DNA of 64,000 bases, from assembly GCA_034044135.1 (NCBI GenBank), contig CP139021.1, positions 3,797,635-3,861,634 of the forward strand. The letters run 5' to 3'. Of the stretch, positions 4,521-7,340 are shown in pieces (within the stretch, counting starts at the first letter, position 1; each line of letters starts with the position of its first letter). This DNA is from Flammeovirgaceae bacterium SG7u.111 (GTDB lineage: Bacteria; Bacteroidota; Bacteroidia; Cytophagales; Flammeovirgaceae). Below the pieces are notes generated by a model that had not been told where the DNA came from, made no database searches, and was given only the letters and a program-made list of their open reading frames with translations. The translations under genes were made by a program, and so were the position numbers.

Positions 4521-5457
4521 CTCTAATTAATTCAAGTTGCGGTGTATATAAGTAAATCTGCCAAAATGTATAAGTTTAAGAGCGACCAAGCCATTAAACT
4601 AAATACATTATGACAGATTATACGATTGCAATATATTGTTTTATTGATGGTTTTCTAAAAAACACCGGTGGCAAAGATGAAAGCAAAAGAAAAATGAACG
4701 ATGCGGAGATCATGACCACCGCCCTGGTCTCGTGCAGGTATTTTTCAGGCAACCAGGCCAAGGGGATGCATTATATGAAGGCACATTTCCAAGTCGACCT
4801 GATAGACAAATCTGGTTACAACAGGCGGCTACATGGCCTTTCCCTGCAGCTTCACCTGCTTTTTATAGGCCTGGGAAATACCCTGAAAGACCTCAACACT
4901 TCTTGTGAATACCTGATCGATAGTTTTCCGGTTGCGGTATGCCGGAACATCAGAATACCGAGAAACAAAATACTGGATGGTGTAGAGGCCTATAGAGGGA
5001 AGAATGCGTCCAAGAGGGAGTATTTTTATGGTTTTAAAGTTCAAATGGTCACCACTGCGGCGGGGGTCCCGGTCGATTATTTTATCTGTGCGGGCTCCTT
5101 TGCCGATATCACGGCCTTTAAGGCGATGGATATCGACCTTCCTGAAGGGAGTACGTTATATGCCGACAGTGGCTATACAGAATATGAAATTGAAGATTTG
5201 CTCAAAGAATGTGAGGGCATTGACTTTTTGGTCGAAAGGAAGTCCAATTCGACCAGAAAAGACTCCCCAGCTTTGGCTTACATCAAAAAACATATGAGAA
5301 AGCGGATCGAGACATCCTTTAGTGAGATCAATGCATTTTTTCCCTTGAAGATCCATGCCGTGACACCGCAAGGCTATCTGCCCAAAATATTCCTGTTCTT
5401 GTTTGCTTATACTTTGAAAAGATCAATTTGATACAACGCAACTTGAATTAATTAGAG
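4521..5457 (+). mobile_element. IS982-family insertion sequence, copy A
   Basis: A 937-bp element bounded by perfect 21-bp inverted repeats, 4521-4541 and 5437-5457 (core ttcaagttgc / gcaacttgaa). It encodes one transposase in the forward direction. No target-site duplication is evident: the left flank ends ccatta and the right flank begins catctt. Confidence 0.88.
4610..5431 (+). CDS. IS982-family transposase
   Basis: 273 residues, a normal length for the family, and apparently intact. DDE-type transposase: the IDSFPVAVC segment holds the first Asp, YADSGY the second, and the ETSFSEINAFFP segment the Glu region. The start at 4610 is preceded by an A-rich stretch inside the left inverted repeat region and the stop lies 6 bases before the right repeat. 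Different in sequence from the other IS982 element at 25.2 kb, so the two are not recent copies of each other. Confidence 0.88.
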   Translation: MTDYTIAIYCFIDGFLKNTGGKDESKRKMNDAEIMTTALVSCRYFSGNQAKGMHYMKAHFQVDLIDKSGYNRRLHGLSLQLHLLFIGLGNTLKDLNTSCEYLIDSFPVAVCRNIRIPRNKILDGVEAYRGKNASKREYFYGFKVQMVTTAAGVPVDYFICAGSFADITAFKAMDIDLPEGSTLYADSGYTEYEIEDLLKECEGIDFLVERKSNSTRKDSPALAYIKKHMRKRIETSFSEINAFFPLKIHAVTPQGYLPKIFLFLFAYTLKRSI

Positions 5458-5881: not shown

Positions 5882-5960
5882 AAAACCAAAAACGCCCCGC
5901 CAAAAATTGACGGGACGTTTCGATGGTTGCATTTTTGTTTTTACTTGCTACCCTTGTTTG
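5882..5960. repeat. Intergenic hairpin repeat, copy B
   Basis: Second copy of the repeat at 5508-5583, direct orientation. Stem 5891-5899 with 5911-5919, here with one C-A mismatch; the flanking blocks (cgtttcgat, gttgc, T-run, ccttgtttgg) are conserved. Confidence 0.7.
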
Positions 5961-6029
5961 GGACGAGCGGATGCTCGCCCCACCTTAGATTTGTGCAGTT
6001 GTATTATTCGAAGGATTGTGTTTAATTGG

Positions 6030-6137
6030 AAAACCTTGATTTCCTTTTGGCCAAGGGGGGCATGGGCGACTCAACTCGCTCCACGAACAAGATTCATCCC
6101 ACTGCTGGATGCCCGTGTCCCCTCCCGTGCCCAGGCC
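6030..6137 (+). ncRNA. Candidate IS110 bridge RNA segment (strong helix upstream of the transposase)
   Basis: The leader of the IS110 transposase can form a 12-bp helix: ggggg-catgggc (6056-6067) with gcccgtg-tcccc (6111-6122), including two G-U pairs. The 43-base apical part contains a smaller catcc/ggatg stem. A further cctTG/CAagg pairing lies at 6034-6038 with 6052-6056. IS110-family elements are known to encode a structured bridge (seek) RNA in a non-coding end, upstream of the gene in the IS110 group. Position and structure fit; the assignment is inference. Confidence 0.35.
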
Positions 6138-6229
6138 TGTATAAGAGTTTGCCACCGTTAAGGTAGTTAGGCTACGCACCAGGTCCTTGGCCTCTAGGTT
6201 TTTTGTCCAACATAAAAATACGGATAACC

Positions 6230-7237
6230 ATGGAATTTAAAAACTTTATCGGCATCGACATCAGCAAAGACACCATCGACCTGGCCCTCTTGGCCGAACA
6301 TGGAGAGCTTGTCAACCTCAAATGGGACAACGACGGGAAAGCACTGGCCAAAGGGCTAAAGTCCCTGTTCAGGGAACACGGAATGGACAAAGAAGACACC
6401 TTGCTATGTGCCGAGCACACAGGACAGTTCGGCAACAAGCTGATGGAAGTGTCCCTGGACCTGGGGCTTTGCCTCTGGATGGAATCACCTTATTCCATCT
6501 CCCGCTCGCAGGGAATGACAAGGGGAAAGGACGACAAGGTGGATGCCGAGAGGATCGCCGGCTATGCCAAGCGGTTCGCCGACAAGGCAAGATTGGTAAA
6601 GCCTACACCCAAGACTATCAATAAGTTAAAGCTTTTGTCCTCTGAGCGGGAACTTGCCATGAAGGATCTCTCGAAATACAAAGGGCAGCTAAAACAGGAG
6701 AAAGGGTTTCTGGACAAAGAGTATTTCAAGGAAAAAGAAAAGAGGGTGAAGAAGCTCATCGCCCTCTATAAAAAAACGGTCGAGGAGATAGAGGAACAGA
6801 TAGCCCAGTTGATAGAGGACGACCCGGACATCAAGGACAGTTTCGACAAGATCGTCTCCGTGGAGGGCGTGGGAAAGCAGACGGCCATCGCCACGATAGT
6901 GGCCACGGAAAACTTCCAGAAATTTGACGACCCCAAGAAGTTTGCCTGCCACATCGGCTGCGCCCCGTTCAGGTACGTGTCGGGCAGCAGCATCCGCTCA
7001 CGCAACAAGGTCTCGCAAAAAGCCAACAAGGACCTGAAGAAAATATTCCACATGGCGGCACTCTCCACCCTGAGGACAAAGGGGGAGCTGCGAAAATATT
7101 ACGACCGCAAAGTGGAGGAGGGCAAGCACAAGATGTCCGTCATAAACGCCATCCGATCAAAGCTCGTCCACCGCATCTTTGCGGTCATTAACCAAAACAG
7201 GAAATATGAAAAAATTTATACGCATTCCCTTGTTTAA
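6230..7237 (+). CDS. IS110-family transposase (DEDD recombinase)
   Basis: About 335 residues from the ATG at 6230; a TTG nine codons upstream is in frame but the domain begins right after the ATG. The RuvC-like N-terminus gives FIGIDISKDTIDLAL (Asp), the CAEHTGQFG segment (Glu) and DDKVDAERIAGYA (two Asp). A coiled middle (about 145-200) precedes the C-terminal Transposase_20 region with SVEGVGKQTA and the YVSGSS motif expected to carry the nucleophilic serine. Intact by length and motifs. Works with a non-coding guide RNA in studied relatives. Confidence 0.9.
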   Translation: MEFKNFIGIDISKDTIDLALLAEHGELVNLKWDNDGKALAKGLKSLFREHGMDKEDTLLCAEHTGQFGNKLMEVSLDLGLCLWMESPYSISRSQGMTRGKDDKVDAERIAGYAKRFADKARLVKPTPKTINKLKLLSSERELAMKDLSKYKGQLKQEKGFLDKEYFKEKEKRVKKLIALYKKTVEEIEEQIAQLIEDDPDIKDSFDKIVSVEGVGKQTAIATIVATENFQKFDDPKKFACHIGCAPFRYVSGSSIRSRNKVSQKANKDLKKIFHMAALSTLRTKGELRKYYDRKVEEGKHKMSVINAIRSKLVHRIFAVINQNRKYEKIYTHSLV

Positions 7238-7257
7238 ACCATAAGAGTAGTGGGGGG

Positions 7258-7340
7258 CATCTTCGCAGTCATAAACCAAAATAGGAAATATGAAAAAATT
7301 TATACACATACCCTTGCTTAAACCATAAGAGTAGTTGGGG
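7258..7340 (+). mobile_element. 3' remnant of a second IS110 copy
   Basis: This stretch repeats 7170-7257 with about 90% identity. It encodes the last 21 residues of a sister transposase (RIFAVINQ...THTLA, stop) and the following ccataagagtagt-tgggg end. The remnant abuts the intact element directly and ends at the stop codon of the next minus-strand gene. Confidence 0.8.

What the first reader, a model, noticed from the sequence alone, without database searches (positions are those of the whole stretch)
5961..7340. IS110 element with a structured 5' leader (bridge-RNA candidate) and a sister remnant
Seen: a 12-pair helix (6056-6067 with 6111-6122, two G-U pairs) capped by a smaller stem in the leader of an intact DEDD transposase, and a 9-base match ggggggcat shared by the helix (6055-6063) and the right junction (7252-7260). 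Known: IS110-family recombinases use an element-encoded bridge RNA whose loops pair with target and donor DNA. Inferred: this leader encodes it, and the shared 9-mer may be part of the recognition. The neighbouring 83-bp remnant is a natural comparison, because it keeps a second right end.
Basis: partly seen in the sequence, partly recalled or inferred. Interest (0 to 1): 0.6.

Follow-up and report, generated by a model that had tools for sequence, protein, structure and literature searches.

The report
IS110 element with a bridge RNA
A mobile DNA element in this genome carries a structured leader RNA whose two loops match the place where the element sits and its own ends, so it very probably jumps by the recently described bridge-RNA mechanism; sister copies in the same genome carry different guide letters that in most cases follow the letters of their own insertion sites.

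Summary
The leader of this IS110-group transposase contains the 12-pair helix, and leaders of relatives keep it through compensatory changes. Eleven full copies in the genome fix the element as 5982-7249, not 5961-7340. Bases 5961-5981 belong to a REP-like palindrome, the target; 7257-7333 is a truncated right end of another copy. The leader (model hit 6037-6192) has the bridge-RNA layout: target loop with guides 6075-6083 and 6098-6104, then donor loop with guides 6141-6148 and 6159-6165. The donor guides match the element's two ends; the target guides match this copy's flanks (8.5 of 9 and 7 of 7). L001 and L004, 98.6% identical, differ in a 3-base block of the left guide that mirrors the difference between their targets; a second genome shows a one-base case. 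Matching is not universal: 7 of 11 own copies score at least 8 of 9, four do not, and two of the latter contradict the block rule. The shared 9-mer GGGGGGCAT is a coincidence at the junction. Verdict: a new member of a known kind (IS110 bridge-RNA element), with an N-A core instead of CT. Function is inferred from sequence only; there are no RNA or recombination data.

The parts
5954..5982 (+). left half of the target site: REP-like palindrome ending in GATGCTCGCCCC and the core A at 5982; left target CTCGCCCCA = 5974-5982
   Evidence: the same left site without insertion (L120, GCTCGCCCCA-GTTGG); 24 sites with at most 1 mismatch
5982..7249 (+). the IS110-group element, 1268 bp counted with one core A at each end (ACCTTAGATT ... 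CATAAGAGTA)
   Evidence: boundaries from 11 copies with different flanks
6037..6192 (+). predicted bridge RNA (target-binding loop plus donor-binding loop); transcript ends not known
   Evidence: covariance model R1, 168 bits; this copy is in the model's seed, so it matches by construction. Hits outside the seed
6056..6067 (+).
6075..6083 (+). left target guide CTCGCTCCA
   Evidence: 8.5 of 9 with 5974-5982; differs between copies at 6078-6080
6085..6095 (+). small hairpin GAA-CAAGA-TTC between the two target guides
   Evidence: helix 2 (three central pairs with changes on both sides, outer pairs weak)
6098..6104 (+). right target guide CCCACTG
   Evidence: pairs 7 of 7 with CA-GTGGG, the core plus right flank
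6111..6122 (+). 3' strand of the target-loop stem
6141..6148 (+). left donor guide ATAAGAGT, identical to the right end of the element (7241-7248)
6159..6165 (+). right donor guide TAAGGTA, reverse complement of TACCTTA (joined ends: T 7248, then A and CCTTA)
   Evidence: layout repeated in relatives
6230..7237 (+). DEDD recombinase, 335 aa
   Evidence: PF01548 and PF02371; aligns with the IS621 and ISCro4 transposases of solved structures, E 5.4e-22 and 1.6e-20
7249..7255 (+). core A and right target (A-GTGGGG)
7257..7333 (+). truncated right end of another, related copy
   Evidence: 91% identity to the element's right end
7334..7340 (+). right target flank of that other copy, GTTGGGG

Best explanation
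This is an IS110-group insertion sequence that moves by bridge-RNA-guided recombination. The leader RNA folds into a target-binding loop and a donor-binding loop. In the target loop, 6075-6083 pairs with the bottom strand left of the insertion point and 6098-6104 with the top strand right of it. In the donor loop, 6141-6148 and 6159-6165 do the same with the joined ends of the excised circle. The DEDD recombinase exchanges strands at one shared A, the second base of an N-A core, inside a REP-like palindrome. Shown here: ends, target, conserved fold, and guide-end and guide-flank matches. Inferred: transcription, binding by the recombinase, circle formation and catalysis.
For: Ends and the single shared A from 11 copies. 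Fold: 23 of 26 pairs have a change on both sides over 17 distinct rows; covariation 0.572 against 0.258 shuffled and at most 0.201 when slid (the alignment is fitted to the model, so it leans that way). Without alignment, 34 of 51 representative leaders (32 of 48 from outside the own genome) have a stem of 10 pairs or more around 43-54 nt at -158 to -228, with 30 distinct 5' strands; shuffled leaders give 1.5 on average, 6 at most, in 100 rounds. The model found leaders outside its seed at the right place and strand: L063 E 1.3e-11, L136 1.2e-7, L137 0.0028. Donor guides 8 of 8 and 7 of 7. Target guides: window copy 8.5 of 9 (p 0.008) and 7 of 7 (p 0.002); L002 likewise; L005-L007 9 of 9 (p 0.0005 each); L010 and L011 8 of 9 (p about 0.02); relatives L092, L095, L063 9 of 9, L093 8.5 (p 0.0005-0.0095). 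Over eight guide classes only the true assignment of 40320 reaches the observed left-guide sum; right guide 2 of 5040, two classes having the same right guide. Co-change: block 6078-6080 is CGA in L004-L007 and so is the target block in all four; it is GCT in L001 and L002 with target GCC. In G001 the first guide base is G or T together with the target.
Against: Four of 11 own copies fail in the fixed register: L003 3 of 9 (6 when shifted by one; better with a 1-nt bulge, by eye), L004 6.5, L008 6 (guide block GCT at a CGA site; a hybrid copy) and L009 2.5 (about 7 when shifted by one, by hand). In one search the target of L009 fits the guide of L010 (7.5) far better than its own. Right-guide matches are weaker: 7,7,5,2,6,5,6,4,5,5,3.5 of 7 for L001-L011; in the scan only 4 of 16 copies (L001, L002, L003, L093) reach p<0.05, and L003 does so at another place. 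Of 37 loci from other genomes 12 reach p<0.05 and 8 p<0.01 in the left-guide scan, uncorrected; three of the eight are identical copies matching outside the target loop, and one of the 37 (L089) had too little flank. The single-sequence fold is not unusual. Rfam gives no hit at gathering cut-offs. No RNA data.
Confidence: 0.92

Rival explanations
1. The leader structure is only a cis-acting mRNA element (attenuator or translation block) of the transposase, not a guide RNA.
For: It lies directly upstream of the start codon, and the leader can form competing stems.
Against: It does not explain why two loop segments equal the element's own two ends, or why two others follow the insertion flanks across copies and relatives.
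Confidence: 0.03
2. Target choice is by the recombinase protein reading the REP-like palindrome, and the guide matches are by shared descent or chance.
For: Six of 11 left flanks (and that of the left-end fragment) end in the repeat's GCTC-NNN-CC arm, so copies share flank sequence anyway; L008 sits at a site that its guide does not match.
Against: The recombinases of L001-L006 are 98-99% identical yet sit at different arms, mostly with matching guides. In G001, G013 and G014 quite different targets match quite different guides 8.5-9 of 9 in four of five copies. Only the true assignment of 40320 reaches the sum.
Confidence: 0.03
3. The shared 9-mer GGGGGGCAT is part of recognition.
For: It is present at both places.
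Against: It spans the seam of the right target flank and the truncated right end; none of the right junctions printed for the other 10 copies has it; chance 7%. In the RNA it lies in the stem, not in a loop.
Confidence: 0.01

Closest known systems
IS621 bridge-RNA system (IS110 group; PMC11208160, PMC11208158, passages seen)
   Same: DEDD RuvC-Tnp recombinase; bridge RNA in a long left end; loops in the order target, donor; left guide pairs with the bottom strand, right guide with the top strand; 9-nt left target guide that includes the core. IS621 too targets REP sequences (title in a reference list).
   Different: Core here is N-A: the A is shared, the first base differs between donor (T) and target (C in 9 of 11 copies); IS621 has CT in both. 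By eye the donor loop lacks a long inner stem-loop; a separate 5' stem-loop was not searched for systematically. Recombinase similarity is E 5.4e-22.
seekRNA of IS110 and IS1111 elements, e.g. ISEc21 and ISEc11 (PMC11187229, abstract and passages seen)
   Same: Non-coding region upstream of the gene; for IS110 elements the order of the two matches is the reverse of IS1111; natural reprogramming between ISEc11 and ISXne4 is reported.
   Different: That case compares two related IS; here it is seen between copies of one genome, L001 and L004 being 98.6% identical.
ISCro4 transposase (PDB 9t56)
   Same: Homologous recombinase, E 1.6e-20.
   Different: Compared by protein sequence only; its RNA was not compared.

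Membership tests
IS110 family, IS110 group | DEDD (RuvC) domain plus Transposase_20 domain | tested here: met
   PF01548 and PF02371 above cut-off; alignment with IS621
IS110 family, IS110 group | conserved SG in a G--P----SG motif | tested here: met
   read by eye: GCAPFRYVSG in P0001; motif as given in PMC11187229
IS110 family, IS110 group | long non-coding region left, short one right; no long subterminal inverted repeats | tested here: met
   248 nt left, 12 nt right; longest exact inverted repeat between the outer 50 nt is 6 bp
bridge-RNA elements | conserved RNA fold with two loops in the non-coding end | tested here: met
   target-loop stem also without alignment; donor-loop stems rest on 8 pairs
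bridge-RNA elements | donor loop complementary to both element ends | tested here: met
   8 of 8 and 7 of 7 in the window copy; same layout by eye in G001, G013, G014
bridge-RNA elements | target loop complementary to both flanks | tested here: met
   met for the window copy (8.5 of 9, 7 of 7) and, on the left guide, for 7 of 11 own copies; four exceptions
bridge-RNA elements | RNA is transcribed, binds the recombinase and directs recombination | not testable with these tools
   needs RNA-seq, binding and recombination assays
IS621-type subgroup | CT core dinucleotide | tested here: not met
   one shared A; donor TA, target CA or TA. Not filed in the IS621 subgroup
IS1111 group | bridge RNA region downstream of the gene and subterminal inverted repeats of 7-17 bp | tested here: not met
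   12 nt downstream, longest exact inverted repeat 6 bp

The most novel reading that the evidence does not exclude
Within one genome this element family re-aims itself: the target-binding loop behaves as a module that mutates and is exchanged between copies by recombination (L008 joins the loop of one lineage to the recombinase of another; L005 is also mosaic), so that copies follow the changing arms of a REP-like repeat family; strand exchange uses a split core in which only one base, A, is shared.
Probability: 0.33. Interest if true: 0.5.

Novelty: new member of a known kind. Interest (0 to 1): 0.36.

Why it matters
It gives a bridge-RNA element with 11 copies and four guide classes in a single genome, so the question of how guides change targets in nature can be studied on copies that differ by little else. 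It shows a core of type N-A. For tool builders it is a further recombinase of 335 residues with a predicted guide layout.

Tried and rejected
Rfam scan of the window at gathering cut-offs: no hit. Single-sequence folding: not significant. DNA search of 38 genomes, the own one included: matches in the own genome only. One-sequence scan of genome contigs: 5 loci, three nearly full-length at 36-41% identity and two stretches of 40 residues at 53%. The shared 9-mer as recognition element: rejected. The left-guide scan in distant relatives (37 loci) was mostly inconclusive; their core register may differ. The order-wide model search hit 5 of 194 genomes with stricter filters, so the model covers the close group only.

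Right-end remnants: 12 fragments including the window's, against one left-end fragment, as far as the search shows. Three of the 12 stand directly right of a copy of the right target flank (A-GTTGGGG, A-GTTGGG or, after the window element, A-GTGGGG). I found no mechanism and leave it open. A promoter at the joined ends was looked for by eye only and is not claimed.

Choices that affect counts: guide and target strings were taken; the G013 right guide was chosen by eye at the expected place, since the scan preferred another place. A first stem count (34 of 50) had wrongly dropped L065, which has a full leader and no stem; the count was redone (34 of 51). In one search eight loci were left out of all counts (five duplicates; L083, L085, L086 with incomplete genes or leaders), and 22 near-identical further copies were left out of the 51; with them it is 50 of 73. 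Among the 51 some genomes give more than one element; L108, left out, has a stem while its kept sister L107 has none. The alignment includes three weak hits (L102, L150, L082), of which L102 is at a wrong place; none was removed.

Full report
What is there. The region holds one intact IS110-group insertion sequence. The transposase (6230-7237, 335 aa) matches DEDD_Tnp_IS110 and Transposase_20 and aligns over most of its length with the IS621 and ISCro4 transposases of solved structures. The genome G000 holds 11 full copies and further fragments. Comparing the copies with their different flanks puts the ends at ACCTTAG (5982) and CATAAGAGTA (7249), 1268 bp.

Target. Six of the 11 left flanks, and that of the one left-end fragment, end in a REP-like palindrome with the arm GCTC-NNN-CC followed by A. 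Sites of the pattern GAGCGGANGCTCNNNNCAG occur 24 times with at most one mismatch, 10 times exactly, against 0 for the pattern read backwards. Five of the 24 are left junctions of inserted copies or of the left-end fragment (by position). The 10 exact ones keep CAG, but two of them (L113, L117) are followed at once by a right-end fragment. L120 reads CTCGCCCCA-GTTGG, the left site of the window copy without insertion, and L121 reads CTCGCTCCA-GTGC, a perfect match to the left guide of this copy, also empty. One base, A, is shared at both junctions; the base before it is C on the left in 9 of 11 copies and T in L010 and L011, and T on the right in all 11.

RNA fold. A model was built from nine leaders of three genomes (own, G001, G014). 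Outside its seed and its seed's near-copies it found L063 (E 1.3e-11), L136 (1.2e-7), L137 (0.0028) and L140 (0.23) in the leader on the right strand; three further weak hits include one at a wrong place (L102). In 194 genomes of the order it hit 5 (17 places; the one in G093, E 0.0035, was not examined) with stricter filters. On the alignment, 23 of 26 pairs show changes on both sides and 86.3% of cells pair, against 67.3% shuffled and at most 51.6% slid; this alignment is fitted to the model. A test without alignment agrees: 34 of 51 representative leaders (32 of 48 from other genomes) have a stem of at least 10 pairs around 43-54 nt at -158 to -228 from the start codon, with 30 different 5' strands; shuffled leaders give 1.5 on average and at most 6 in 100 rounds. 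L010 and L011 do not pass this strict test.

Guides. In the donor loop ATAAGAGT (6141-6148) equals the right end, and TAAGGTA (6159-6165) is the reverse complement of TACCTTA formed by the joined ends. In G001, G014 and G013 the right end reads ATAAGAGA and so does the guide. In the target loop the window copy has CTCGCTCCA (6075-6083) against the left flank CTCGCCCCA (8.5 of 9, a wobble counted as half, p 0.008) and CCCACTG (6098-6104) against CA-GTGGG (7 of 7, p 0.002). Of the 11 own copies seven reach at least 8 of 9 on the left guide; L003 (3), L004 (6.5), L008 (6) and L009 (2.5) do not. Right-guide matches in fixed register are 7,7,5,2,6,5,6,4,5,5,3.5 of 7 for L001-L011. Of five copies in G001, G014 and G013 four reach at least 8.5 on the left guide. 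Across eight guide classes only the true assignment of 40320 reaches the observed left-guide sum, although the target of L009 fits the guide of L010 better than its own; for the right guide 2 of 5040, two classes having the same right guide.

Natural re-aiming. L001 and L004 differ at 18 of 1268 positions, three of them the adjacent 6078-6080 (GCT to CGA) inside the left guide; eight of the 18 are peculiar to the window copy. All four copies with guide block CGA (L004-L007) have CGA in the target; of the four with GCT, two (L001, L002) have GCC, which pairs with one wobble, while L003 has CTC and L008 CGA. In G001 the two copies differ in the first base of the left guide (G or T), and their targets differ the same way. 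L107 and L108 in G069 differ in the last base of the matching stretch (C or T) in guide and flank alike, with scores 8 (p 0.0045) and 7 (p 0.21); their core register is not established. L008 has no difference from L009 over the last 1074 alignment columns but carries the leader start of the other lineage, and its flanks are of two kinds; L005 is mosaic in the leader and early gene. This suggests that loops and recombinases are reshuffled by recombination. Natural reprogramming between related elements is already reported (ISEc11 and ISXne4; PMC11187229, passages), so the principle is not new; its occurrence among close copies of one genome is a fine-grained case.

Remnant. 7257-7333 is a truncated right end followed by its own GTTGGGG. 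The search shows 12 right-end fragments including this one and one left-end fragment. In three (window, L014, L021) a copy of the right target flank lies directly left of the fragment. No explanation was found.

Comparison. Layout and strand logic are those of IS621 (PMC11208160 and PMC11208158, passages): left guide on the bottom strand, right guide on the top strand, target loop before donor loop, core included in the pairings. The clear difference is the N-A core with an unshared first base. I searched the held papers only with the terms and make no claim that the core or this element is unreported.

Limits. All functional steps (transcription, binding, circle, strand exchange) are inferred from homology and sequence matches.

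Noticed in passing
Only one copy was found in that genome; its right end was not found with three motifs.
   Followed up: partly
window 7250-7340; L014; L021: Right-end fragments lying directly right of a copy of the right target flank, 3 of 12; right-end fragments outnumber left-end ones 12 to 1 in the search.
   Followed up: partly
window 6343-6387: Eight clustered positions where the window copy differs from L002-L006, which agree with each other there, as after a small gene-conversion event.
   Followed up: no
L010 and L011: Two copies with the same guide carry a recombinase broken into two reading-frame pieces, yet sit at different places with the same left target TCCCACCTA, perhaps moved in trans.
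   Followed up: no
window 4610-5431: A neighbouring DDE transposase gene of another IS family (PF13612 and PF01609).
   Followed up: no
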